From: Pseudomonadota bacterium | Lineage (GTDB): Bacteria > Chloroflexota > UBA6077 > JAJPHF01 | Direction of reading: 5' to 3' | NCBI GenBank assembly: GCA_021325365.1 | Contig: JAJPHF010000153.1 | Coordinates: forward strand, 1 to 31,841 | DNA: 31,841 nucleotides | Shown here: piece after piece, positions 6,042 to 31,650 of the stretch | How the letters are laid out: each line of letters begins with the position of its first letter | Position numbering within the stretch: the first letter of the stretch is position 1 | The notes under the pieces: generated by a model | Told to the model about the DNA's origin: nothing | Databases searched by the model: none | Seen by the model: the letters and a program-made list of their open reading frames with translations, nothing else | Program-made: the position numbers and the translations under genes

Positions 6042-6932
6042 ATGAGGAAGAAGACACCGTCGCGACTCAGCACTCGGGGCGCGGCAAGCGGGGCTTCCAC
6101 GGCACCGAACACTTCGGCCGCGGGCCGCGCCCGGCTCGACGTGGCGCTGGTGGAGCGCGGCCTGGCGGCTAGCCGCGAGCAGGCGCGGGCGTTGATCCTG
6201 GCCGGCGACGTGCTCGTGGATGGGCAAGTGGCCGCGAAGCCGGGCGCGCTCGTCCCGGACGCGGCGGCGCTCGCGGTGCGGGCCGCGCCGCCTTACGTGA
6301 GCCGCGGCGGCGAGAAGCTCGCGCATGCCCTGGCGCGCTTCGACGTCGACGTCGCGGACCGCGTGGCGCTTGACGCGGGTGCCTCGACGGGCGGCTTCAC
6401 CGACTGCTTGTTGCAGCGCGGCGCACGGCGCGTGTACGCGGTCGACGTGGGTTACGGCCAGCTCGACTGGCGGCTGCGCCAGGACCCGCGCGTGGTGGTG
6501 ATGGAGCGCACCAACCTGCGGCAGCTCCAGGCGCTGCCCGAGCCGCTGGACCTGGCGACGCTGGACCTGTCGTTCATCTCGCTGCGGCTCGTGCTGGAGC
6601 CGGTGCGCCAGCTGCTGCGTGCCGAGGGCGAGGTGATCGCGCTGGTGAAGCCACAGTTCGAGGCCGGGCGCGGCCAGGTGGGGCGTGGCGGCGTCGTGCG
6701 CGACCCAGCGATCCACCGCGCGGTGCTCGGCGAGGTGCTAAGCTGGGCAGCCGCGCACGGCTACGCTATCCGGGGGCTGACGGCGTCGCCGCTGCGAGGC
6801 CCGGCGGGCAACGTCGAGTTCCTGGCGTACCTCGTGCGGCAAGAGCCGGTCCCCGGCCGCGGGGCCGCGGCGGCGGGCGACTACGGCTCGCTGATCGACG
6901 CGGCCCTGGCCGAAGCCGCGGCAGTCGGCTAA
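6042..6932 (+). CDS. tlyA: TlyA-family rRNA 2'-O-methyltransferase
   Basis: TlyA enzymes methylate ribose 2'-OH groups of rRNA (in mycobacteria C1409 of 16S and C1920 of 23S). The 296-residue protein has an S4 RNA-binding domain (about residues 30-85, [21 protein letters not shown]) and an FtsJ-like fold with SAM motif [13 protein letters not shown]. The catalytic tetrad positions look intact: Lys92 (RGGEKL), Asp175 (LDLSF), Lys203 (LVKPQFE) and Glu259 (NVEFL). An unusual Ser/Thr/Ala-rich stretch of about 28 residues precedes the S4 domain and is partly encoded by a heptad-repeat fragment. No in-frame start is apparent nearer the S4 domain. Followed by nadK and recN, the common order. Confidence 0.92.
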
Positions 6933-6944
6933 TGTCCGCTCCCC

Positions 6945-6978
6945 GCCCCCTATGGGGGGAGGGGCCGGGAGGGGGGGT
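6945..6978 (+). repeat. G-run/C-run hairpin upstream of nadK
   Basis: CCCCGCCCCCTATGGGGGGA followed by GGGGCCGGGAGGGGGGGTC forms a C-rich/G-rich foldback. The purine-rich end also provides the GGGAGGGG ribosome site for the GTG at 6984. Similar pyrimidine/purine foldbacks are frequent between genes in GC-rich environmental genomes. Confidence 0.45.
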
Positions 6979-6983
6979 CACGC

Positions 6984-7882
6984 GTGGAGCGAGTCGCGGT
7001 CGTCTACCAGCCCGGCATCGCGGACGCGCAGACGCTCGCCGAGCAGTGCGCCGAGTATGTCGTCGGCCGCGGCCACGCGGCCCAGCTGTACTCGTCGTGG
7101 GACCTCGGCACCTCGGTGACCACGGACGGGCTCACGCTCGCCATCACCTTCGGGGGCGACGGCTCCACGTTGCGCGTTGCGCGCTGGCTCGCGGCGACCG
7201 TCGTGCCCATCGTCGGCGTGAAGATGGGGCGGCTGGGCTTCCTCGCCGAGCTGCTGCCCGACGAGCTGCCCGCCAGCCTCGATCCCTACCTGGCCGGGGA
7301 CTACTGGCTGGACGTGCGGACGATGGCGCGCGCCGGGCTGCTGCCGCCGCCGGTGACCGATGGGCCGCACCTGCCCGTCCCGCCATCGCCGCCGTGGGAG
7401 CAGCCGGCCGTGATGCCGAGCCCCACCGCGCTGGAGGCGATGGGGCCGCTCGTCGCGCTCAACGACGTGGTGGTTGGCCGGGCCGCGGCCGGCCGCGCCG
7501 TGCGCGCCGTGGTCGAGATCGACGGCACCGCGCTGGCGCAGTGGACCGCCGACGGCGTGATCGTGGCGACGGCTACGGGCTCCACCGCCTACTCGTTTGC
7601 CGCCGGCGGGCCGATCCTGATGCCCGAGCTGCCCAACCTGGTCGTCACGGCGATCGCGCCGCACGTCCACGGCACGAACGGGATCGTGCTGCCGCCCGAC
7701 GTGGCGGTCACCATCCGCGTGTCCACGCCGCAGACGGCGAGCGTGAGCCTCGACGGCCACATCGACCTGCCGCTGCTCGACGGCCAGGCGTCACGGTGCG
7801 CGTGGCCGACGAGCACACGCGCTTCGCTCGGCGCGGCCGGCGCTCCGCCTTCTACCGCGGCCTGCTCGAGAAGCTGCGGTAG
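6984..7882 (+). CDS. nadK: NAD kinase, with an apparent -1 frameshift near the 3' end
   Basis: NAD kinase phosphorylates NAD to NADP. The GTG start at 6984 follows GGGAGGGG. Motifs present are FGGDGSTLR (residues 56-64, catalytic Asp59), PIVGVKMGRLGFL, ALNDVVVGR and TATGSTAYSFAAGGP. A Pro-rich insert of about 35 residues precedes ALND. In this frame the normal C-terminus is lost after residue about 268 (DNA about 7789). The expected ending VTVRVADEHTRFARRGRRS and on to a TAG at 7880 is intact in the next frame. Restoring one base in GGCGTCACGG near 7788-7791 would join the halves into a normal protein of about 299 residues. As written, the frame instead continues in phase into recN. This could be a sequencing or assembly deletion, a real mutation, or recoding. 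Confidence 0.85.
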
Positions 7883-20792: not shown

Positions 20793-20819
20793 CCCAGCAG
20801 CCGCAAGGGACGTGGCCTT

Positions 20820-20870
20820 GTAGGGGCGGCTCTCGTGGCCGCCCGCGGCCCGCAGGCCGCAGCCCCGGCG
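20820..20870 (+). repeat. Dispersed palindromic repeat, long subtype (copy 1)
   Basis: It starts GTAGGGGCGGCTCTCGTGGC, whose arms fold on CCGCCC. A second hairpin, GCGGCC-CGCA-GGCCGC, follows, then AGCCCCGGCG. It shares order and sequence with the copies at 20898 and 26243. It lies between the Rieske and SDR genes. Confidence 0.8.
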
Positions 20871-20897
20871 CCCCGATGCGAACGGCCCCGGAGTCTC

Positions 20898-20948
20898 GTA
20901 GGGGCGGGTCGGGTGCCGGCCGCGGCCCGCAGGCCGCAGCCCGGGCGG
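20898..20948 (+). repeat. Dispersed palindromic repeat, long subtype (copy 2)
   Basis: It starts GTAGGGGCGGGTCGGGTGCC, then GGCCGCGGCC-CGCA-GGCCGC and AGCCCGGGCG. It is in the same orientation as the copy 78 bases upstream. The second hairpin, GCGGCC-CGCA-GGCCGC, is identical in both copies. Confidence 0.8.
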
Positions 20949-20973
20949 CCACAGCGGATCGGTGGGAGATTGC

Positions 20974-21892: not shown

Positions 21893-22963
21893 ATGAAATG
21901 GATAGCGTTGCTGGCCGCGCTCCTCACCGCGGCGTGCGCCGCCGGGTCCGGCACGCGGCCGACCGCCCCCGCGCCGCCGGCGCCCCCGGCGGCCGCCGGC
22001 GCGGCGCCCGCGCCGGCCACTGGCCAGCCGACGCTCGCGCCGCTGCCCGAGAAGGTGACAATCGCCTACTCGTCGATCAGCGGCGACTTTCTGCCCCTAT
22101 GGGTGACGACCGAGGCGGGACTGTTCGCCAAGCACGGCGTTGACGTGGAGCTGACCTACGCCTCCAGCGGCACCACGACCATGCAGAGCCTGCTGGCGGG
22201 CGAGGTGCAGCTCGTGCTCTCGTCCGCGCCCGAGTCGGCCGCGGCGCTCGTCGGCGGTGCGCCCGTGCGCATCGCGCTCGCCTGGAACCAGGGCATCGCC
22301 GCGCTGTTCATGGTCGATCCCAGCATCACGAGCCCGGAGCAGCTTCGCGGCCAGGCGATCGGCATCTCGCGCTTTGGCGGCCAGCCGCACGTGGCCGCGC
22401 GGCTGGCGCTCAAGAAGTGGGGCCTCGACCCCGACAACAGCGTGCAGTACGTCCAGCTGGGCGGCGTCGCGGAGATCCTGGCCGCGATGCAGCAGGGCGC
22501 GGTGGTGGGCGGCGTGTTCTCGCCGCCGACCAACGTGCGCGCCCAGCGCCTCGGGTTCCGCGTGCTCGGCGATCTCGGCCAGATGGACGTCGGCTACCAG
22601 ACCGACACGCTGAGCGCCCTGGAGCCGTACATCGACCAGCACCCCGAGGCGCTGCGCCGCGTCACGCGCGCGATCGTCGAGGGCATCAAGCTGACGATGG
22701 AAGACGATGCGCTGGCGCTCGCCGCGCTGGCGAAGTACACCAAGGTCGACGATCCGGACGTGCTGAGGGACACGCTCTCGTACCTGCGTACGGTCTTCAA
22801 GCGCGTGCCGTACCCGTCGATGACCGCGCTACAGACCCATCTGGACGAGATCGCGACGACCGACCCGCGCGCCCAGGGCATGACGGCCGACCAGCTGGCC
22901 GACACCCGGGCGCTCGCCGAGATCGAGCGCGAGGGTTTCATCGAGCAGCTCTACGGGAAATAG
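21893..22963 (+). CDS. NMT1/THI5-like substrate-binding lipoprotein (1)
   Basis: The 356-residue protein has a short signal peptide with a lipobox-like LLTAAC (Cys15), a Pro/Ala linker of about 35 residues, and a periplasmic-binding fold typical of nitrate/sulfonate/thiamine-precursor receptors (SsuA/NMT1): VTIAYSSISGDFLPLWV, EAGLFAKHGVDVELTY, TMQSLLAGEVQLVLSSAPES, LRGQAIGISRFG and YIDQHPEALRRVTRAIVEG. No ABC permease or ATPase gene adjoins it. Ribosome site is weak (GAGG about 10 bases before ATG 21893). It is followed 80 bases on by a second, divergent binding protein. The ligand is unknown, possibly an aromatic or pyrimidine-like compound handled by this cluster. Confidence 0.88.
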   Translation: MKWIALLAALLTAACAAGSGTRPTAPAPPAPPAAAGAAPAPATGQPTLAPLPEKVTIAYSSISGDFLPLWVTTEAGLFAKHGVDVELTYASSGTTTMQSLLAGEVQLVLSSAPESAAALVGGAPVRIALAWNQGIAALFMVDPSITSPEQLRGQAIGISRFGGQPHVAARLALKKWGLDPDNSVQYVQLGGVAEILAAMQQGAVVGGVFSPPTNVRAQRLGFRVLGDLGQMDVGYQTDTLSALEPYIDQHPEALRRVTRAIVEGIKLTMEDDALALAALAKYTKVDDPDVLRDTLSYLRTVFKRVPYPSMTALQTHLDEIATTDPRAQGMTADQLADTRALAEIEREGFIEQLYGK

Positions 22964-23043
22964 GCGAGGCTGGCCGGCCGCCGCGAACCGCCGTGTAGCG
23001 CCGGCGCCGCGGACGGCCGACGCCAGCCGACGAGGAGGAGCGG

Positions 23044-24180
23044 ATGGCCGGCGCGCGCCGTGCCCGCAACCTGTTGCTCGGGGGCCTAGTCCTGGCGGCC
23101 GCCTGCGCGCCAGCGGCCGCGCCCGCGCCGCCGGCCGCGACAGCCGGCCCCGCGCCCACGGCCAGCGCGCCCGCCGCGGCGAGCCCGGCGCCGTCCGCGC
23201 CGACGGCGCCCCCGGCCGCCACCCACGTGCGCGTCGCCAGCCAGTTCGCCTCGACCGACGTCGGCCACTACATCGCCATCGAGCGCGGCTACTACCAGCA
23301 AGAGGGAGTCGACGCCGAGCTGGTGAACTTCGCCGACGCCTCCGAGATGATCCCGTCGCTCGCGACCGCCCAGGTCGAGGTGGGGGGCATCGGCCCGAAC
23401 CCCGCGACCTGGAACGCGCTCGCCCGCGGCGTCAAGCTGAAGCTCGTCATGGACAAGGGGAGCGCGCGGCCCGGCGCCGGCTACACCGCGCTGGTGATCC
23501 GCAAGGACGTATACGACGGTGGCCGCGGCCACAGCCTGACCGACCTGCGGGGCTTGCACATGGCGTTCACGCCGCCCGGCAAGGCGACGACCAACGCGAT
23601 GCCGATGGCGGTCGGGATGGAGCGCGCCGGCGCGTCCATCGACGACCTCGTGATCGAGCCGATCCCCTTCCCCGACATGGTGTCGGCGTTGGCGAACGGC
23701 TCCGTGGACGGCGCGATGATCGTCGAACCGTTCTTGAACCGGGTGCTCCGCCAGGGCAGCGCCGTGCGGGTGATGGGGCTGGACGAGATGTACCCCGACT
23801 TCCCAATCGCCCAGGTGGGCTTCGCCCCGGCGTTCTATGCGAACCGCGCCGTCGCCAAGGCGCTGGTGCGCGGCTACGTGCGGGCCGTGCGCCACTACGA
23901 CAACGCGGTGGCGGGTCGCACCAGCGACGCCGACCGCGCGCAGATCGACGACATCCTGAGCCGCTACACGCATATCGACGCCGCCACGGTCCACGACATG
24001 GTGCCCGTCGGCCTCAACCCCAACGGGCGCTTCAACGTGGACGGTGTGCGCGACGCCTATCGCTGGTTCCGCGAGCAAGGGTTCATCCCGGAGCCGGTGT
24101 CCGAGGCGGCGATCGACGACCTGATCGGCCTGGAATTGGTGGACGAGGTGCTGGGCGAGATCGGCCGCGTGCCCGACTGA
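23044..24180 (+). CDS. NMT1/THI5-like substrate-binding lipoprotein (2)
   Basis: The 378-residue product has a signal peptide ending in lipobox LAAAC (Cys21), an Ala/Pro linker of about 38 residues, then the binding fold: HVRVASQFASTDVGHYIAIE, RGYYQQEGVDAELVNF, EMIPSLATAQVEVGGIGPNP, LTDLRGLHMAF and ALANGSVDGAMIVEPFL. The fold is the same as in the preceding gene but the ligand-side residues differ, so the two probably bind different compounds. GAGGAGGAG lies just before ATG 23044. The thiolase gene starts 67 bases downstream. Confidence 0.88.
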   Translation: MAGARRARNLLLGGLVLAAACAPAAAPAPPAATAGPAPTASAPAAASPAPSAPTAPPAATHVRVASQFASTDVGHYIAIERGYYQQEGVDAELVNFADASEMIPSLATAQVEVGGIGPNPATWNALARGVKLKLVMDKGSARPGAGYTALVIRKDVYDGGRGHSLTDLRGLHMAFTPPGKATTNAMPMAVGMERAGASIDDLVIEPIPFPDMVSALANGSVDGAMIVEPFLNRVLRQGSAVRVMGLDEMYPDFPIAQVGFAPAFYANRAVAKALVRGYVRAVRHYDNAVAGRTSDADRAQIDDILSRYTHIDAATVHDMVPVGLNPNGRFNVDGVRDAYRWFREQGFIPEPVSEAAIDDLIGLELVDEVLGEIGRVPD

Positions 24181-24247
24181 CCCGGCGCGCGAGCCGGCAG
24201 CGCGGCGTCCGCGGGGACGCGCGCGTCTGCCGCAGGAGGGAGCGAGC

Positions 24248-25435
24248 ATGCCAGACACGCTACGCGGAGCCGCCGCCATCGTGGGCATCGGCGAGCTGAA
24301 GCCGGAGCGCACCCGGCCCGGCCGCGACGCCATGAGCCTGCTGGCCGAGGCCGCCTACCTGGCGATCCAGGACGCCGGCCTGACCAAGCGCGACATCGAC
24401 GGGATGGTCGTGGACGAGGGGATGGGCCCGGCTGGCTCGGGCTACTGCACCAAGATGGCCGAGCACATGGGCATCTTCCCCACCTGGGCGACCGGCTGCG
24501 ACGCCCAGGGCGCCGCGGCCGTCGTCATGGCGCTCCAGGCTGCCGCTTACGTCAACGCCGGCCTGGCGACGTTCGTGCTCTGCGGCATGGGCACGGCGAT
24601 CGACCCGGCCGCTCGCCGGGCGCGGGGCTCGCCGCAGACCGACACCGCCACGACCGAGTTCCAGGTGCCATTCGGCCCGACCCAGGGCGCCAACGGCTGG
24701 TACGCCATGATCGCCCAGCGCCACGAGGCGCTGTACGGCACGACCGTCGAGAAGCGCGCCAAGATCTCGGTGGACTTCCGCTACAACGCGAACCACAACC
24801 CCCTGGCCTACTTCCACGACACGCCGCTCACGGTCGAGGACGTGGTCAACTCGCGCATCGTCGCCGACCCGCTGCACCTGCTGGAGTGCGTCATGCCGTG
24901 CGCCGGCGGCGCCGCGTTCATCGTCACGCGCGCCGACATCGCGCGCGGCATGCGCCACCAGCCCGCCTACATCCTGGGCGGCGGCCTGGGCATCCCCCGC
25001 AGCAACCTGACGCACCTCGGCGAGATCACCATTGCCCCGGTCGGCCGCGCCGCGAAGAAGGCGTTTGCGATGGCGGGCTACGGGCCGAAGGACGTGCAGG
25101 TGATGGAGCTGTACGACTCGTTCACCATCACCGTCATCTGTGAGCTGGAGGACTCGGGCTTCTGCCAGAAGGGGGAGGGCGGCGACTGGATCCAGGCGCA
25201 CGACCTGACGTTCAAGGGCGACCGTCCGACCAACACGCACGGCGGCCAGCTTTCCTGCGGCCAGGCCTCGACGGCCGGGGGCTGCGCGCAGGTCACCGAG
25301 GCCGTGCGCCAGATTCGCCGCGCCGCGGGCGAGCACCAGGTGCCCGGCCCCACCGACCTGATCTACGTGACCGGCTCCGGCGGCTCCTTCTCGCAGCAGT
25401 CCGCCATGCTGCTCGGCACCGACGCCACCCTCTAA
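24248..25435 (+). CDS. Thiolase-family protein (SCP-x/lipid-transfer type)
   Basis: The 395-residue protein has the thiolase fold of the SCP-x branch: AAIVGIGELKPERTRPGRDA, LLAEAAYLAIQDAGLTKRDI, GYGPKDVQVMELYDSFT, EDSGFCQKGEGGDWI and HGGQLSCGQASTAGG near the C-terminus. Around residue 84 the sequence reads ATGCDAQGAAAVV, and its Cys may be the nucleophile, but spacing differs from the classical CxSG. The GHP histidine of classical thiolases reads CGQA. Some relatives of this branch act as retro-aldolases with a DUF35 partner, and such a partner lies downstream at 25688. An AGGAGGGAG site precedes ATG 24248. Confidence 0.88.
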   Translation: MPDTLRGAAAIVGIGELKPERTRPGRDAMSLLAEAAYLAIQDAGLTKRDIDGMVVDEGMGPAGSGYCTKMAEHMGIFPTWATGCDAQGAAAVVMALQAAAYVNAGLATFVLCGMGTAIDPAARRARGSPQTDTATTEFQVPFGPTQGANGWYAMIAQRHEALYGTTVEKRAKISVDFRYNANHNPLAYFHDTPLTVEDVVNSRIVADPLHLLECVMPCAGGAAFIVTRADIARGMRHQPAYILGGGLGIPRSNLTHLGEITIAPVGRAAKKAFAMAGYGPKDVQVMELYDSFTITVICELEDSGFCQKGEGGDWIQAHDLTFKGDRPTNTHGGQLSCGQASTAGGCAQVTEAVRQIRRAAGEHQVPGPTDLIYVTGSGGSFSQQSAMLLGTDATL

Positions 25436-25536
25436 GCATCCGACCGAGAGGAGGATGGACGCTGGGCCTCACCAAACGTCCGTACCAACCAGCGACTTAA
25501 CTTACAAACGGCTTCCGGGAGGCCGAGCCGCGCCAG

Positions 25537-25573
25537 GTAGGGCGGGGGCTCGTCCCCCGCCGCCCGGCTGGAG
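25537..25573 (+). repeat. Dispersed palindromic repeat, short subtype (copy 1)
   Basis: GTAGGGCGGGGGCTCGTCCC continues with CCGCCGCCCGGC. GGCGGGGG pairs with CCCCCGCC around a 5-base loop CTCGT. It lies between the thiolase and DUF35 genes, 69 bases from a second copy. Confidence 0.85.
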
Positions 25574-25605
25574 TCGGTGCTGTCGTCTCTCGCGCTAAAG
25601 GTGAG

Positions 25606-25640
25606 GTAGGGCGGGGACTCGTCCCCCGCCGCCCGGCCCG
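25606..25640 (+). repeat. Dispersed palindromic repeat, short subtype (copy 2)
   Basis: GTAGGGCGGGGACTCGTCCC continues with CCGCCGCCCGGC. It is nearly identical to the copy at 25537 in the same orientation. One arm carries a G-to-A change relative to that copy, weakening one pair next to the loop. Confidence 0.85.
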
Positions 25641-25687
25641 CGCCGCCGGGATCATTAGTTCGGCAAACCGCTCGAGGAGCATGACTG

Positions 25688-26119
25688 ATGACCGCCGCGA
25701 ACGAGTACAAGAAGCCGCTCCCGACCCCCAGCGCGGTGAGCCGCCCCTTCTGGGACGCGGCGAAGGAGCACCGCCTGCTCTACCAGCGCTGCCGGATCTG
25801 CGGCACCCGCGTCTTCTATCCGCGCGACGTGTGCCCGGGGCCGGAGTGCTTCGGCATCGGCACCCTGGAGTGGGTCGAGTCCACCGGCAAGGGCTGGGTT
25901 TACGCGCACACCATCTCCTACCAGCCGGCCCACCCGGGCTTTGCCGACGACGTGCCCTACGTCCTCGCCATCGTCGAGCTAGACGAGGGCGTGCGCATGA
26001 ACACCAACATCGTGAACGTCGATCCCAAAGCGGTCCGCATCGGCATGCGCGTCGAGGTGGTGTGGGACGACGTGACCGACGAGTTCACCCTGCCGAAGTT
26101 CCTGCCGGCCCAAGAGTAG
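25688..26119 (+). CDS. Zn-ribbon/OB-fold (DUF35) partner of the thiolase
   Basis: The 143-residue protein has a long N-terminal helix region (SRPFWDAAKEHRLLYQRC), a rubredoxin-like zinc site with Cys35-x2-Cys38 (CRICG) and Cys49-x4-Cys54 (CPGPEC), then an OB fold (GKGWVYAHTISYQPAHPGF, PYVLAIVELDEGVRM). Proteins of this type bind thiolases, HMG-CoA synthases or the SCP-x retro-aldolases and shape their acyl-CoA site. That fits the thiolase gene upstream. ATG 25688 has GAGGAG eight bases upstream; an out-of-frame ATG at 25681 stops at once. The 252-base gap from the thiolase, filled partly by two palindromic repeats, is unusual, because such pairs are normally adjacent. Confidence 0.9.
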   Translation: MTAANEYKKPLPTPSAVSRPFWDAAKEHRLLYQRCRICGTRVFYPRDVCPGPECFGIGTLEWVESTGKGWVYAHTISYQPAHPGFADDVPYVLAIVELDEGVRMNTNIVNVDPKAVRIGMRVEVVWDDVTDEFTLPKFLPAQE

Positions 26120-26242
26120 ACAGTACCCTTTGTCCTATGGCGCCGTTCAGAGCGTGGAAGCGACCCGGGTGACGATGGGTACCTCTGCTGCCCGCGCCAG
26201 CGGCCAGAGGCCTCGCAGATCGTATAGGCTAGGCAGGCCGAC

Positions 26243-26293
26243 GTAGGGGCGGGTTTCATGCCCGCCCGCGGCCGTCGGGCCGCAACCCCGGCG
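26243..26293 (+). repeat. Dispersed palindromic repeat, long subtype (copy 3)
   Basis: GTAGGGGCGGGTTTCATGCC opens a hairpin GGGCGGG-TTTCATG-CCCGCCC; GCGGCC-GTCG-GGCCGC follows, then AACCCCGGCG. It is the best-paired copy. The 285-base gap (26120-26404) holds this repeat and no other clear feature besides a possible -10 TATAGG at 26223. Confidence 0.85.
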
Positions 26294-26404
26294 GTAGCAG
26301 ACCGCTAGCCCAAGCTGCAAACCGCCATGGGATGCGCGCAGGACACTCGCGGCGCGGCCAACCAGCCGCCTCGCGGGCAATCGTCGGCGGAAACGGAAGC
26401 CTAC

Positions 26405-27493
26405 ATGCGCGGTCAGCTGCTCGGCGGCGTACTCGGCGCGCTGCTCGTCGTGGCCGGGAGTCTGGCGTGCGGTGCGCCGTCGAGCCGGTCCAGCGGCGCC
26501 CAGGGCGCGGCCCAGCGCGGAGCGGCCGCCTCGCCCGCACCGTCCGAGGCGGCCGCGGCAGCGGCCAGCACCGCGACGCCGCCGGCGCCGCGCCAGTTCG
26601 ACATGCCGCTCGTTTCGACCGCGGCGTCGATGGTGCCGTTCTGGATCGCCGACGAGCAGGGGATCTTCCAGCGCTACGGGCTGGCGCCTAGGCTCGTGCA
26701 GTTGCCGCCAGCCACCGCCGCCCAGGCGCTCAGCGCCGGCAGCGCCCCCATCGCGGCCGCGGGCGGCAGTGTGGTCAGCGCCTGGGTCGGCGGCGCGACC
26801 GACCTGGTGTTCGTGGCCGGCAACTCGAATAAGGCCCCCTACCGGGTCATTGTGCAGCCGGACATCCAGCGCGTGGACGACCTGCGCGGCAAGTCCGTGG
26901 GGCTGACCACGCCCGGCGCCAGCCCCTCCGTCGCCATGATCGAGGTGTTGCGCCGCTACGGCCTGGAGGCCGACCGCGACGTGACGTTCACCTACCTGCG
27001 CGACACGCCGGCGACCGTCACCGGGCTGCTGACCGGAGTGGTCCAGGCGATCGCCGTGAGCAGCCCCCAGGCCGAGTACACGCTGGCGGAGGGCGGCCGG
27101 CTCTTGCTCGACATGCGCGGCCTGAACGTGCCCATTCTCGGCCCCCAGATCGCCACGACGCGGGGCCTGGTCGAGCGCGACCCGGACTTCGTGCGCCGCG
27201 TCATAATGGCCTACGTCGAGGGACTTCAGTACGCCCGCGACCATCCCGACGCCGGCATCGGGTCGGTCATGCGCGGCGCGATGCTCGACGACCGCGACCT
27301 GGCCGAGCTAGCGTACCGCGAGTACGCGCCGATGTGGGACCCGTGGCTCTCGGAGGCGGCGATCCAGACGCTGCTCGACAACATGGACGTGCCGGCGGCG
27401 CACACGACGCGCCCGGCCGAGATGATCGACGACCGTTTCCTGCGCGAGCTAGACAGCAGCGGTTGGCTCGCCGCCCACCTCCGGCCCCAGTAG
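26405..27493 (+). CDS. NMT1/THI5-like substrate-binding lipoprotein (3)
   Basis: The 362-residue protein starts MRGQLLGGVLGALLVVAGSL and has a lipobox SLAC (Cys22), an Ala/Ser/Pro linker, then a receptor fold: PLVSTAASMVPFWIADEQGI, FQRYGLAPRLVQLP, AQALSAGSAPIAAAGG, VDDLRGKSVGLTTPGASPSV and ARDHPDAG. ATG 26405 is chosen because it begins the signal peptide with GGAAG five bases upstream; the frame is open 26 codons earlier without coding character. It is the third binding protein of the cluster, again without permease or ATPase, and it differs in sequence from the other two. Confidence 0.88.
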   Translation: MRGQLLGGVLGALLVVAGSLACGAPSSRSSGAQGAAQRGAAASPAPSEAAAAAASTATPPAPRQFDMPLVSTAASMVPFWIADEQGIFQRYGLAPRLVQLPPATAAQALSAGSAPIAAAGGSVVSAWVGGATDLVFVAGNSNKAPYRVIVQPDIQRVDDLRGKSVGLTTPGASPSVAMIEVLRRYGLEADRDVTFTYLRDTPATVTGLLTGVVQAIAVSSPQAEYTLAEGGRLLLDMRGLNVPILGPQIATTRGLVERDPDFVRRVIMAYVEGLQYARDHPDAGIGSVMRGAMLDDRDLAELAYREYAPMWDPWLSEAAIQTLLDNMDVPAAHTTRPAEMIDDRFLRELDSSGWLAAHLRPQ

Positions 27494-28052: not shown

Positions 28053-29288
28053 GTGGCGAGCGCGACGGCGTATCTAGAGCAAGGGTCGGCGGCGTACTGG
28101 CGCGCGAACCTGGCGCTGTTCCTCGGCGGCTGGGTCACGTTCGCCTGTCTCTACTCGACACAACCCGTGCTGCCGGCGCTCACCGCCGAGTTCGGCGTGG
28201 CGCCCGCCCTCGCCAGCCTGTCGGTCTCGCTCACCACGGCGACGCTAGCGGTCACCATGCTGCTGGCCGCGTCGCTCTCCGACACCTGGGGCCGCAAGCC
28301 CGTCATGGCGGCCTCCCTCGTCGCCTCGGGCACGCTCGCGCTACTTACCGCGTTCAGTCCCGACTTTCACACACTGCTCGCGCTAAGGACGCTGCAAGGC
28401 GTGGCGCTGGCCGGCTTCTCGGCCATCGCCATGACCTACGTGGCCGAGGAGATCGCGCCGCACGGCCTCGGCCTGGCGATGGGCATCTTCATCAGCGGCA
28501 ACGTGCTCGGCGGCATGAGCGGGCGCCTGACGGTGGGCCTCATCGCCGACGTGGCCGGCTGGCGCGGCGCGCTCGGCGTGCTGGGCGCGGCCGGGCTCCT
28601 CGGCGGCCTCGCCTTCTGGCGCCTGCTGCCGCCCTCGGCGCACTTCGCGGCGCGGCCGTTCGTCGGGCGGGGCCTGCTCGGCGCGCTCGCCGTGCCGCTG
28701 CGCGACCCGGGGCTGCGCTGCCTCTACGCCATCGGCTTCCTGCTGATGGGCGGCTTCGTCACGCTCTACAACTACCTCGGCTACCAGCTCATGGCGCCCC
28801 CATACTCCCTCAGCCAGGCCGCCATCGGCTGGGTGTTCCTGAGCTACCTGGCGGGCGCGTTCAGCTCGACGGTGATGGGCCGCTGGGCCGACCGTGTGGG
28901 GCGGCGCAAGGTCCTGTGGACGGGGGCCGCCATCATGCTCGCCGGCGCGGCGCTGACCCTCGCCGCGAGCCTGCCGCTGAAGATCGCCGGCGTGGTCGTG
29001 TTCACGTTCGGCTTCTTCGCCGCTCACTCCATCGCCAGTAGCTGGGTGGGGCGGCGCGCGCTCACGCATCGCGCGCAGGCCTCGGCGCTGTACCTGTTCT
29101 TCTACTACATGGGCTCCAGCGTGGCCGGCCCGGTCGGCGGCCTCTTCTGGAGCGGCCTCGGCTGGCCCGGCGTCGTCGGCCTCATCACCGGCGCCCTCCT
29201 CGGCGCTCTCGCCCTCGCCGCGCGCCTGGCCGCCATTCCGCCGGTCCTGCTCGCCACCGGGGCCGCCGCGCCCTCGCCCGAGCGCTAA
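28053..29288 (+). CDS. MFS transporter (drug/metabolite efflux type)
   Basis: The 411-residue protein has 12 hydrophobic helices in two halves. The loop between helices 2 and 3 carries the MFS signature LSDTWGRKP, repeated in the second half as ADRVGRRKVLW. ALRTLQGVALAGFSAIAMTYVAEE is motif-B-like, and GIFISGNVLGGMSGR is typical of the YnfM/arabinose-efflux-like exporters. GTG 28053 has GAGGAGAG upstream. The last 26 bases of the gene, including the stop codon, are repeated almost perfectly at 30972-30997, so this 3' end may be an integration site. Substrate unknown. Confidence 0.92.
   Translation: MASATAYLEQGSAAYWRANLALFLGGWVTFACLYSTQPVLPALTAEFGVAPALASLSVSLTTATLAVTMLLAASLSDTWGRKPVMAASLVASGTLALLTAFSPDFHTLLALRTLQGVALAGFSAIAMTYVAEEIAPHGLGLAMGIFISGNVLGGMSGRLTVGLIADVAGWRGALGVLGAAGLLGGLAFWRLLPPSAHFAARPFVGRGLLGALAVPLRDPGLRCLYAIGFLLMGGFVTLYNYLGYQLMAPPYSLSQAAIGWVFLSYLAGAFSSTVMGRWADRVGRRKVLWTGAAIMLAGAALTLAASLPLKIAGVVVFTFGFFAAHSIASSWVGRRALTHRAQASALYLFFYYMGSSVAGPVGGLFWSGLGWPGVVGLITGALLGALALAARLAAIPPVLLATGAAAPSPER
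29263..29288 (+). repeat. Direct repeat, left copy (possible attL)
   Basis: A 26-base stretch ending at the last base of the MFS stop codon matches 30972-30997 at 25 of 26 positions (the single difference is G versus A just before CGCTAA). Beyond the stop, similarity fades but about 19 of the next 30 bases still agree. Confidence 0.7.
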
Positions 29289-29425
29289 ACGCTCCCGCCG
29301 CACGAAGGGCCGCAGGCCCAACCCATTTGACTTGAGCAGCCAATCGCCCATCGGGCGGCTGCAAGCGCGGGGCTGCCCGTGCGCACCTGAGCGAGCTGGG
29401 TCGCGGCCTCGCCGCGGCGCGTCGG

Positions 29426-29728
29426 GTGGTCGGGCCGATCCAGTGCGCCGAGTGTGGCCAGGAAGTCATTGCCACCACGGCCGGGCGCTACAAGCGGCGC
29501 TATTGCTCGCCGCGCTGCCGGGCATGCGCCTACTGCCCCACCCACCGGGCCGGGCTGACCGACCGCCAGCGCGAGCGCCGTGCTCAGCGCCGTGGCGAGC
29601 TGGCCGTAGACCCCGTGCCGCTCTCCGCAAAGGAAGCGGCAATGATTGCCGCGTCGGCCGAGGCGATGGCCCGTGGCGACTACCTGACCGACGCCGAGCT
29701 AGACACCCTGCTCGCCCGCGAGGCCTAG
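29426..29728 (+). CDS. Small Cys-rich protein with antitoxin-like C-terminus
   Basis: I do not recognise a named family. The 100-residue product has six cysteines near the N-terminus (7, 10, 27, 31, 34, 37) in CAECGQEV, RYCSPRCRACAYC, which look like one or two zinc sites such as a treble clef. A very basic stretch (RQRERRAQRR) follows, then an acidic helical end, AMARGDYLTDAELDTLLARE, resembling the tail of small antitoxin-like proteins. GTG 29426 has no good ribosome site. It lies inside the direct-repeat-bounded segment, so it may be mobile-element cargo or its regulator. Confidence 0.55.
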   Translation: MVGPIQCAECGQEVIATTAGRYKRRYCSPRCRACAYCPTHRAGLTDRQRERRAQRRGELAVDPVPLSAKEAAMIAASAEAMARGDYLTDAELDTLLAREA

Positions 29729-29763
29729 GCTGGCGCGGCCCTGGCGGCCCTGTACCGTTGTCT

Positions 29764-29825
29764 GGCACGTCCCCGTGCCGCGGTCCTAGCGCCGCCAGAA
29801 TGCCCACCACGGCCGCGGCACGGGG
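29764..29825 (+). promoter_or_regulatory. Competing hairpins in non-coding DNA
   Basis: CCCCGTGCCGCGG (29771-29783) and CCGCGGCACGGGG (29813-29825) form a perfect 13-bp stem with a 29-base loop. The same CGTGCC can instead pair with GGCACG (29764-29769) in a small local hairpin. The two folds exclude each other, as in attenuators. There is no clear U-tract, so this is only a structural observation. Confidence 0.45.
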
Positions 29826-29890
29826 GCGGGTGTCTCGCACGTCGGCGCCGTGGCAGGCACCGCTATGCCGTAGGTCCACCGGCCACCCGG

Positions 29891-29903
29891 ATGCACAGTG
29901 CAT
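29891..29903 (+). promoter_or_regulatory. Palindrome ATGCAC-A-GTGCAT, possible operator
   Basis: A perfect 6-bp inverted repeat around one base, 66 bases before the -35 at 29969. The symmetry suits a dimeric DNA-binding protein, but no consensus is recognised. Confidence 0.35.
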
Positions 29904-29968
29904 GCCCTGCCTGGCGCTGGCCCTGAGGTGCCCAATGGGCCGCCGGGGGCGTATACCCCGGCCCGCGC

Positions 29969-29998
29969 TTGTCGCGCCTGGCGGGGGCAGTGTATGAT
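29969..29998 (+). promoter_or_regulatory. Promoter-like pair before the structured RNA
   Basis: TTGTCG (29969-29974) and TATGAT (29993-29998) are 18 bases apart. A start about six bases after the -10 would fall at 30002-30006, exactly on the GGTGACTC that begins the 18-bp stem. Confidence 0.5.
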
Positions 29999-30001
29999 GG
30001 T

Positions 30002-30149
30002 GGTGACTCGGTCCGGGTCGGCGTCGTTAGTCTCTGACCCTACAGCGTGCCCTGTCGTTTCAGCGCGTGGGCGTCACACCCTACACACTGTCGCCGCAGG
30101 CGCCCACTGTCGTCTCCGATTCTCGCGTGGTGACCCGGGCCGAGTCACC
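30002..30149 (+). ncRNA. Candidate structured RNA closed by an 18-bp terminal stem
   Basis: GGTGACTCGGTCCGGGTC (30002-30019) pairs with GACCCGGGCCGAGTCACC (30132-30149) over 18 consecutive positions, with a single G-U wobble. The 112 bases between contain nested 4-bp stems (CTGA/TCAG outside ACAG/CTGT near 30040) and a 7-bp stem GTGGGCG/CGCCCAC (30067-30073 with 30101-30107). The 5' arm begins where the upstream promoter-like pair would start transcription, as expected for an RNA with paired ends. A short hairpin CTGCTC/GAGCAG follows at 30152-30166. Size and closing stem recall 6S RNA, but I see no 6S, SRP, RNase P or tmRNA signature. The strand is inferred from the promoter. It could also be a DNA-level inverted repeat. 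Confidence 0.45.
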
Positions 30150-30277
30150 CACTGCTCCCGGAGCAGCCCTGCCTGATTCGCGGCCGGCCCGCGTTCCACT
30201 CGGCCGCGCTCCCTCTACTCCGCCGCTTCTGGCCGCCTAAGCACCGCCGCAGCCCACGTCGTGCGTAGCCGCGCAGC

Positions 30278-30727
30278 GTGAACAGCGCCTTCTTGGCCGC
30301 CGTCGTCGCGGGCCTGGCGAGTGTCGGAGGCTTTCGGCATGCCCCCGAAGACGCCTGTCCGGCCTGTGCTCCCTTCTGGCAGCATGTCGCGGCCGTGCTC
30401 GGCGCCCTAGAAACCGAGGCCGATAACCTTGCGTTCGCGAGGACAACGCGCATGCATCGCGGCAGTATGGCGGCTCTAGCTGTTGCGGCGGCCTTTGCCG
30501 CTGTCGGGCTCTATTGCCTGGTACTGGGCCGCCGGGCGCAAGCAGAGGCGATTAAGAGCATGGAGCGCATGCGCCGAATCCCGGTCCTTGGCCCGATCTA
30601 CTGCAACCCCCTGATGGAGTGGTGGGTGAGCAGCCGGCTGTGTTTGTGGACCGCCTGGCTGATCGGAATCTTCGCGCTCTGCGGCGCGTTGTGGCTAGCC
30701 TACCTCGCACTGACCATGGCGCGCTGA
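30278..30727 (+). CDS. Small membrane protein of unknown function
   Basis: No family recognised. The 149-residue product has two clear membrane helices: MAALAVAAAFAAVGLYCLVL (about residues 64-83) and LWTAWLIGIFALCGALWLAY near the C-terminus, separated by a basic cytoplasm-like loop (RRAQAEAIKSMERMRRIP). The first 58 residues hold a weakly hydrophobic start and a CPAC pair. GTG 30278 lacks a ribosome site; ATG 30452, with AGGA eight bases upstream, would give a 91-residue two-helix protein and may be the true start. It lies just downstream of the candidate RNA and inside the repeat-bounded segment. Confidence 0.5.
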   Translation: MNSAFLAAVVAGLASVGGFRHAPEDACPACAPFWQHVAAVLGALETEADNLAFARTTRMHRGSMAALAVAAAFAAVGLYCLVLGRRAQAEAIKSMERMRRIPVLGPIYCNPLMEWWVSSRLCLWTAWLIGIFALCGALWLAYLALTMAR

Positions 30728-30752
30728 GGATACGAGCACGTCGCACGCAATC

Positions 30753-30929
30753 GTGCATTACGAAGGGACTGGTCCAGTCGCCACACAAGTGGGTACCGAC
30801 GCCCGCCTACTCGACCTCTGGCTACACGACCACTCGCCGCAGACCCAGCGCGCCCACGAGGCCGGCGCCGACACCTTCCTGGCGCTCGTCGGTAAGCCAC
30901 TGCGCGCCATGACGTTCGGCGATTTGTGA
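30753..30929 (+). pseudogene. Remnant of a tyrosine recombinase (N-terminal SAM-like domain only)
   Basis: The 58-codon frame reads DARLLDLWLHDHSPQTQRAH followed by EAGADTFLALVGKPLRAMTF and GDL, then a stop. This is the core-binding (phage-integrase SAM-like) domain of XerC/D-type integrases, which normally continues past this point with a helix and a catalytic domain bearing R-H-R-Y. None of the catalytic part is present. The stop lies 42 bases before the right direct-repeat copy. The frame begins at GTG 30753 without a ribosome site. Most likely the rest was lost by deletion at the element end. Confidence 0.75.
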
Positions 30930-30971
30930 GCCGACACCGGCGTGACGACGAGCGCGCCGCCCCGCCTCGCC

Positions 30972-30997
30972 CCGCCGCGCCCTCGCCCGAACGCTAA
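30972..30997 (+). repeat. Direct repeat, right copy (possible attR)
   Basis: It matches the MFS gene 3' end (29263-29288) at 25 of 26 positions, including the TAA. Together the copies bound 1.7 kb containing the Cys-rich gene, the candidate RNA, the membrane protein and the integrase remnant. Confidence 0.7.
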
Positions 30998-31550
30998 GCC
31001 TTACAGCCGCGCTTCTGGCACCGCGCCCAAGCCGTGGGACTGGAGCGCCCGACGCCCCGGATCGGTTGGCGTCGAGTTCGCCGCCCGAAACCGTGGCCCA
31101 TCTCAGGCGCGGCTATCCAGTGCGATGCCACACCGGACAACCGCCTCCCGCAAATGCATCTGTAGTAGAGAGGCTGCGAGGCGCGCCGGAGAGCGCCTGC
31201 TAGCTCGCGTGACGTGGTCGCCGTCCCTGCCCGTACACGCCTCCTCCCGCGCCCGCCGCCCGCGCCCGGCCCGGGGCACCCCGCCCCGCCGGCCCGGCCC
31301 ACGGCGGAGCCCCGGGGGAGTATCGTACGGGGTAAACGATGCGACCTTCCGCGCCCGAGGAGCACGCTGAATCCCGCGCCCGGCCTAGCACTTAACCATC
31401 CGGTCAAGGAGCATCGTTTGACCGTTCCTCGGATAAACTTACGCACCCGCGGGCCCATCCCTGGATGCGGTCGGGGGCTATGTTGCCACGCGCCGCCACC
31501 ATCGTGCCGCCTCCGGCGTGGCGGTTCGTCGCCTGGGCGGATGATGGGCC
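30998..31550. other. Long stretch without a supported gene
   Basis: About 550 bases between the right repeat and the promoter of the last gene. Frames here lack ribosome sites, recognisable domains and normal codon bias. It contains an inverted repeat AAACGATGC (31334-31342) / GCATCGTTT (31411-31419), an overlapping small hairpin GGTCAA/TTGACC (31402-31422) and a very C/G-rich block at 31240-31310. It may hold a regulatory leader or decayed sequence. Confidence 0.5.
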
Positions 31551-31557
31551 GCGGGTC

Positions 31558-31563
31558 TATACT
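31558..31563 (+). promoter_or_regulatory. -10 element TATACT before the second Rieske gene
   Basis: TATACT in GGTCTATACTCTTC lies 87 bases before the start at 31651. No convincing -35 is seen. Confidence 0.45.
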
Positions 31564-31650
31564 CTTCGCCACACGCTGGCCGGTGGCCCGCGTCCCGCAC
31601 GGTGCCGGCCGGGCGCGCGTCCCGCGCGATGCCCAGGAGGAGTGACGACG

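What the first reader, a model, noticed from the sequence alone, without database searches (positions are those of the whole stretch)
29263..30997. Direct repeats bound a 1.7-kb segment with an integrase remnant: a degenerate integrative element
The last 26 bases of the MFS gene, stop codon included, recur at 30972-30997 with one mismatch. A tyrosine recombinase N-terminal domain ends 42 bases before the right copy. Integration into a gene 3' end with restoration of that end, and an integrase next to one attachment site, is the classic layout of such elements. Cargo is unusual: a Cys-rich protein, a structured RNA candidate and a small membrane protein, with no transfer or phage genes.
Basis: partly seen in the sequence, partly recalled or inferred. 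Interest (0 to 1): 0.75.

Follow-up and report, generated by a model that had tools for sequence, protein, structure and literature searches.

The report
Decayed integrase relic behind transporter gene
Behind a transporter gene of a little-known bacterium lie a broken DNA-integrating enzyme gene and two near-identical short repeats, probably the worn-out remains of an old mobile element, of an ordinary kind, whose former insertion could not be proven here.

Summary
The repeat is real: 29263-29288 and 30972-30997 agree at 25 of 26 positions; pairs this good were absent from 4 of 8 comparable GC-rich stretches and single in 3. It is longer than reported: the next 49 bases rightward agree at 30 of 49, leftward 11 of 49. 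The integrase remnant is real: 9 of 10 plasmid recombinases align up to exactly base 30926; roughly 230 codons, catalytic domain included, are missing. MFS tandem duplication is not supported. The 'Cys-rich protein' is a zinc-ribbon family, its start codon lost here; the membrane ORF matched only its own lineage. The three ORFs have lower GC3 than 10 host ORFs of the window.

The decisive test, an empty site, was impossible: no genome of this lineage could be reached. Against the attachment-site reading: none of 10 aligned relatives shares the MFS tail, and core and flank diverged unequally. Best reading: degenerate remnant of a tyrosine-recombinase element, about 0.5; local duplication in a relic zone 0.33. 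Ordinary in kind, low interest.

The parts
28053..29288 (+). MFS transporter gene (YNFM-like by names given to relatives), intact; putative target gene
   Evidence: Pfam MFS_1 E 2.4e-42; relatives 80-89% identical, one named Chloroflexota; GC3 0.95
29263..29288 (+). left copy of the 26-base repeat (end of MFS gene, stop included); putative attL core
   Evidence: 25/26 to right copy
29289..29337 (+). weaker rightward extension of the left copy
   Evidence: 30/49 in register with 30998-31046
29426..29728 (+). zinc-ribbon ORF; homology starts upstream (about 29372) where no ATG/GTG/TTG start remains in frame
   Evidence: 82% over 100 aa to a Chloroflexota MAG protein; alignment; in-frame reading upstream
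29764..29832 (+). GC-rich hairpin about 35 bases behind the zinc-ribbon stop; terminator- or relic-like, unassigned
   Evidence: inverted repeat I22; sub-threshold Rfam F6 match, E 0.14; 8 plasmid records at E 3e-3 to 0.5, best three Thermus, 83% over about 45 bases; both taken as stem similarity
29969..29998 (+). promoter-like TTGTCG-18-TATGAT at the left edge of the palindrome
   Evidence: 1 found against a mean of 0.2 in shuffles
29982..30160 (+). long imperfect palindrome (structured RNA candidate or fold-back/MITE-like DNA)
   Evidence: arms 30002-30019/30132-30149 94% complementary; fold of 29995-30160 z -4.6; extended arms with a 9-base insertion; no Rfam family at gathering score
30278..30727 (+). 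orphan ORF with two hydrophobic stretches (ATG alternative at 30452)
   Evidence: only hit is the lineage's own P0010; hydropathy; GC3 0.78-0.79
30753..30929 (+). tyrosine recombinase N-terminal remnant (XerD-like, a name from recall), stop after 58 codons
   Evidence: homology stops at 30926 and was not found to continue
30972..30997 (+). right copy of the 26-base repeat; putative attR core
30998..31046 (+). weaker rightward extension of the right copy

Best explanation
The segment is the decayed remnant of a small integrative element of the tyrosine-recombinase kind. A circular element with a site resembling the MFS 3' end would have recombined with that end (inferred): the left copy restores the gene end, the right copy is the displaced original end with its old downstream flank. 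The integrase gene at the right edge lost its catalytic part and the zinc-ribbon gene its start, so the remnant can no longer move by itself (the losses are shown by comparison with relatives; that they followed an integration is inferred).
For: Direct repeats at a gene end, seldom matched in comparable DNA. Homology starts abruptly at 29263/30972 and extends only rightward, as when a site carries the gene end plus downstream sequence. A true tyrosine-recombinase N-terminus lies 42 bases from one copy. The three ORFs between the copies have GC3 0.78-0.85 against 0.91-0.97 in 10 host ORFs, MFS included; an eleventh ORF measured, 6932-7879, has 0.58 and was left out as an unlikely gene (no Pfam hit). 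The longest contig of the closest zinc-ribbon cluster, P0002, is 125,254 bp, a length not shown for any of the 120 listed MFS clusters: a weak hint that the gene is not tied to this locus. In streptococci, of 73 tyrosine-integrase elements 39 sit at 3' ends of tRNA or housekeeping genes, 7 at 5' ends and 27 integrate with low specificity; the site-specific ones have 12-54 bp repeats, and most integrase genes lie at one edge (PMC4701971, passages seen).
Against: No empty site, no second element, no excision evidence. The tail AAPSPER is in 0 of 10 aligned relatives (of 120 listed; 6 of the 10 are 80-89% identical), so the site is not a conserved target. Core and flank diverged unequally (1/26 against 19/49, Fisher p 8e-4), which a simple site model does not itself explain. 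Base composition is at most mildly unusual: GC 0.702 (30th lowest of 302 overlapping windows), tetranucleotide rank 19, dinucleotide rank 60.
Confidence: 0.5

Rival explanations
1. Local duplication in a patchwork of relics: a short stretch (MFS end plus about 50-90 bases downstream) was copied 1.7 kb away by replication or repair error, into a region that already held decayed genes, among them an unrelated solitary recombinase.
For: The similarity runs on past the stop codon for 49 bases in register and weakly to about 90 with gaps (8 of 300 shuffles as good); the recombinase fragment ends abruptly and no recombinase signal was found in the repeat.
Against: A plain duplication should decay evenly unless one part is under selection, but the core is 25/26 and the flank 30/49; the left copy spans just the end of a gene, as attachment sites do.
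Confidence: 0.33
2. The 26-base match is coincidence or shared GC-rich sequence, and the integrase fragment is an unrelated relic.
For: GC-rich sequence gives near matches: one other 24/26 pair in the window; 25/26 or better occurs in 4 of 8 control stretches, once each in three and 94 times in one with long repeats; 8 of 669 pairs sharing a 12-mer have an equally good 49-base continuation.
Against: It lies exactly at a gene end, continues in register, and 0 of 100 dinucleotide shuffles of the window matched the pattern at all.
Confidence: 0.12
3. Suicidal (SSV-type) integration: the attachment site lies inside the integrase gene, so integration split it into int(N) at the right copy and int(C) at the left copy.
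For: int(N) sits just before the right copy, the arrangement expected; the layout is described for archaea (PMC8371274, passages seen).
Against: No integrase signal in or beyond either copy: profile scores 22.3 (right), 31.0 (left) and 35.2 (left, after the core) against 188 null windows with mean 34.9; anchored motif test at the right copy, 878 of 1514 null positions as good. The review says such integrases are found only in archaea.
Confidence: 0.03
4. The right copy is the end of a second, decayed MFS gene (tandem duplication).
For: None found.
Against: tblastn of the MFS protein on 29289-31650 gives nothing better than E 6; no similarity left of the right copy, 11 of 49.
Confidence: 0.02

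Closest known systems
Genomic islands, ICEs and IMEs with tyrosine integrases at the 3' end of a protein gene (such as guaA, rplL, lysS sites)
   Same: Direct repeat holding a gene 3' end, recombinase gene near one repeat
   Different: 1.7 kb only, recombinase truncated, no transfer or phage genes recognised, target tail not shared by relatives, no empty site seen
Tyrosine recombinases of about 290-300 aa annotated on plasmids (Methylorubrum pCMU02, Rubrobacter plasmid 1, Gloeothece plasmids); 'XerD-like' is my label from recall
   Same: 40-52% identity over the N-terminal part in 10 of them
   Different: Only 58 codons left, catalytic domain absent
Archaeal suicidal (SSV-type) integrases
   Same: int(N)-like fragment beside one repeat
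   Different: No int(C) signal at the other repeat; tested and not met
YacG-like zinc ribbons
   Same: C-x2-C and C-x3-C zinc ribbon; JGI names some of the relatives YacG/DUF329 family; best but non-significant fold match is YacG (E 0.7)
   Different: Below the Pfam and NCBIfam cut-offs; longer, with a helical C-terminal half

Membership tests
Tyrosine-recombinase integrative element at a gene 3' end | Direct repeats flanking the segment, one completing a gene | tested here: met
   25/26 repeat at the MFS end and at 30972
Tyrosine-recombinase integrative element at a gene 3' end | Intact tyrosine recombinase inside, near one repeat | tested here: not met
   Only 58 codons remain; homology ends at 30926. 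A degenerate remnant would look so.
Tyrosine-recombinase integrative element at a gene 3' end | Empty site in relatives | not testable with these tools
   No held genome for the window; genome scan returned no locus labelled Chloroflexota; no usable centre for a phylum search
Tyrosine-recombinase integrative element at a gene 3' end | Same element elsewhere | tested here: inconclusive
   None in viral contigs (8 scans) or phages; plasmids gave only matches of E 0.2 or worse among the rows listed for the segment, two Streptantibioticus records at E 0.01 for the zinc ribbon and none for the palindrome.
Tyrosine-recombinase integrative element at a gene 3' end | Target sequence conserved among related hosts (usual, not strictly required) | tested here: not met
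   0 of 10 aligned MFS relatives share the tail; some of these may be cut by contig ends
XerD-like tyrosine recombinase | N-terminal core-binding part | tested here: met
   9 of 10 plasmid recombinases align up to 30926, the tenth to 30851, best E 5.8e-11
XerD-like tyrosine recombinase | Catalytic domain with R-H-R-Y residues (residues recalled) | tested here: not met
   Not found after 30926. In 9 of 10 queries the C-terminal part has a weak hit at about 2291-2407, E 0.67-9.8, inside the ribosomal S9 ORF region far away; taken as chance
Suicidal (SSV-type) integrase | int(C) adjoining the opposite repeat | tested here: not met
   Left-copy flank scores at null level
MFS tandem duplication | MFS sequence upstream of the right copy | tested here: not met
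   tblastn and in-register comparison

The most novel reading that the evidence does not exclude
A minimal, non-autonomous integrative element whose cargo is an orphan structured RNA with its own promoter and an orphan two-helix membrane protein, moved in trans by related recombinases elsewhere in the genomes of this lineage.
Probability: 0.05. Interest if true: 0.55.

Novelty: new member of a known kind. Interest (0 to 1): 0.2.

Why it matters
If an empty site were found, it would add a non-conserved transporter gene end to the list of integration targets and show how small an element relic can become while its repeats survive. Otherwise it is an ordinary relic zone. The orphan palindrome with a promoter-like site is the one part that might deserve study of its own.

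Tried and rejected
Integrase continuing through the right copy: by eye the frame at 30985 reads like a recombinase motif, but a frameshift-tolerant profile from 10 recombinases scored low (186 of 188 null windows as high or higher) and the anchored test failed (878 of 1514 as good). Rejected.

MFS tandem duplication: not supported. Third copy of the repeat: none by blastn-short in the window. Known RNA: no Rfam family at gathering score; sub-threshold matches (F6, TB10Cs3H1, MIR1437, P10, sR43; E 0.14 to 4.3) taken as chance. 6S RNA was considered from memory; it is not among the matches up to E 10. Defence cargo: no PADLOC hit up to E 1. Zinc ribbon in phages or viral contigs: none by tblastn; PHROGs gives P0003 E 4e-7 and 1e-6 to two phage families (the second HNH endonuclease), read as a shared zinc ribbon. 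A 31221-31306 match to 1759-1847 was judged low-complexity GC similarity on sight of the alignment. The first hairpin 29763-29833 has 8 weak plasmid matches, best E 3e-3 on Thermus plasmids, not followed up. The 3942-base query matched plasmids only in the MFS and Rieske parts in the 20 of 29 records listed.

Own slips: the first query (from 29389) and the last row (from 29332) were out of the zinc-ribbon frame, as were two GC3 rows and the last line; only the P-rows and one search are used.
Full report
WHAT IS THERE. The MFS gene 28053-29288 ends in 26 bases that recur at 30972-30997 with one mismatch. Pairs this good are uncommon at such spacing: in eight other GC-rich stretches, 342 kb in all, pairs of at least 25/26 at 300-3000 bases apart numbered none in four, one each in three and 94 in one repeat-rich Streptomyces stretch. 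In the window itself the only non-tandem same-strand pair of 25/26 is this one; one further pair reaches 24/26.

THE REPEAT IS LONGER AND LOPSIDED. To the right of the core, 30 of the next 49 bases agree in register; 15 of 394,964 random pairs of the window reach that, and 8 of 669 pairs that share an exact 12-mer do. To the left there is nothing, 11 of 49. A gapped comparison of the right flanks is matched by 8 of 300 shuffles; the left flanks are at chance (202 of 300). The core is better kept than the flank (1/26 against 19/49 changed, Fisher p 8e-4). A rightward repeat that starts inside the gene end is what a recombination site carrying the gene's end would leave, but it also suits a plain short duplication; unequal decay argues somewhat against the latter.

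THE INTEGRASE. The 58-codon ORF 30753-30929 is a tyrosine-recombinase N-terminus: 22 plasmid records match by tblastn at E up to 0.1, 11 of them over at least 80% of the query. Of 10 full-length recombinases taken from these records, 9 align up to exactly 30926 and the tenth to 30851. A profile of the rest of the protein finds nothing after that point. The sharp end and the stop at 30927-30929 mark a truncated gene; by the lengths of the relatives roughly 230 codons are missing. Since the relatives were sought on plasmids, and in one viral scan without result, their plasmid habit is no evidence of origin.

THE CARGO. The zinc-ribbon ORF 29426-29728 has eight relatives besides the lineage's own P0001, the nearest (82%, P0002) named as a Chloroflexota MAG protein. 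All eight begin upstream of this start, and matching codons are present here from about 29372, but no ATG, GTG or TTG precedes the internal GTG at 29426 in frame: the start is lost or replaced. The fold model is weak (pLDDT 76, pTM 0.33) and its best PDB match is YacG at E 0.7, not significant. The membrane ORF 30278-30727 matched only the lineage's own P0010 among 1740 candidates. Between them lies a palindrome, 29982-30160, with z -4.6 for 29995-30160, and a promoter-like site at its left edge; no Rfam family reaches its cut-off, and no match was found in plasmids or, by exact pattern, viral contigs. GC3 of the three ORFs is 0.78-0.85; 10 host ORFs have 0.91-0.97, an eleventh (6932-7879, 0.58, no Pfam hit) being left out as an unlikely gene. 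By overall composition the segment is at most mildly unusual: of 302 overlapping windows it ranks 19th in tetranucleotide and 60th in dinucleotide distance and 30th lowest in GC.

WHERE IT COMES FROM. No genome is held for the window. The nearest named MFS and zinc-ribbon relatives are called Chloroflexota, so the lineage is inferred to be an uncultured Chloroflexota. The one genome scan kept 80 MFS loci, at best 56% identical, none labelled Chloroflexota. What the protein data do show is that the MFS tail is not conserved: of 10 relatives aligned (out of 120 listed), six of them 80-89% identical, none ends in AAPSPER; four end in APRGR or APRRP. In streptococci more than half of the tyrosine-integrase elements use 3' ends of tRNA or well-conserved housekeeping genes (39 of 73; PMC4701971, passages), so an ill-conserved transporter tail speaks against a broad integration target, though not against a single event. 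The longest contig of the nearest zinc-ribbon cluster is 125,254 bp, a length shown for none of the 120 listed MFS clusters: a weak hint that the gene is not tied to this place.

VERDICT. The reading as a degenerate integrative element is the best single explanation but is not proven (0.5); a local duplication in a relic zone is the main rival (0.33). Suicidal integration and MFS tandem duplication were tested and are not supported. In kind it would be a further decayed member of a well-known class.

LITERATURE. Searches: (one search failed). Passages were seen in PMC8371274 and PMC4701971; all other papers were seen only as listings with the start of the abstract. No claim is made that the locus is or is not in print.

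Noticed in passing
29982-30160: Imperfect palindrome of about 180 bases, strongly folded (z -4.6 for 29995-30160), with a promoter-like TTGTCG-18-TATGAT at its left edge; arms differ by a 9-base insertion that holds the TATGAT. Could be a structured RNA or a fold-back DNA relic.
   Followed up: partly
25535-25637: Two copies (97% over 34 bases) of a hairpin-forming intergenic repeat around GGGCGGGG.CTCGTCCCCCGCC, 69 bases apart, REP-like by eye.
   Followed up: no
20817-20873, 20895-20950, 26243-26293: Three copies (84-86% identical) of another interspersed GC-rich repeat; two of them share the stretch CCGCAGGCC with the sequence behind the MFS gene at 29310.
   Followed up: partly
1200-1240: Seven-base tandem repeat (CAGCACT units) in the 5' part of ORF 1167-2048, upstream of its ribosomal protein L13 domain.
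   Followed up: no
21893-27493: At least two NMT1-like ABC substrate-binding proteins (21893-22963, 26327-27493) in the run of genes towards the MFS and Rieske genes; perhaps an uptake and aromatic-compound neighbourhood.
   Followed up: no
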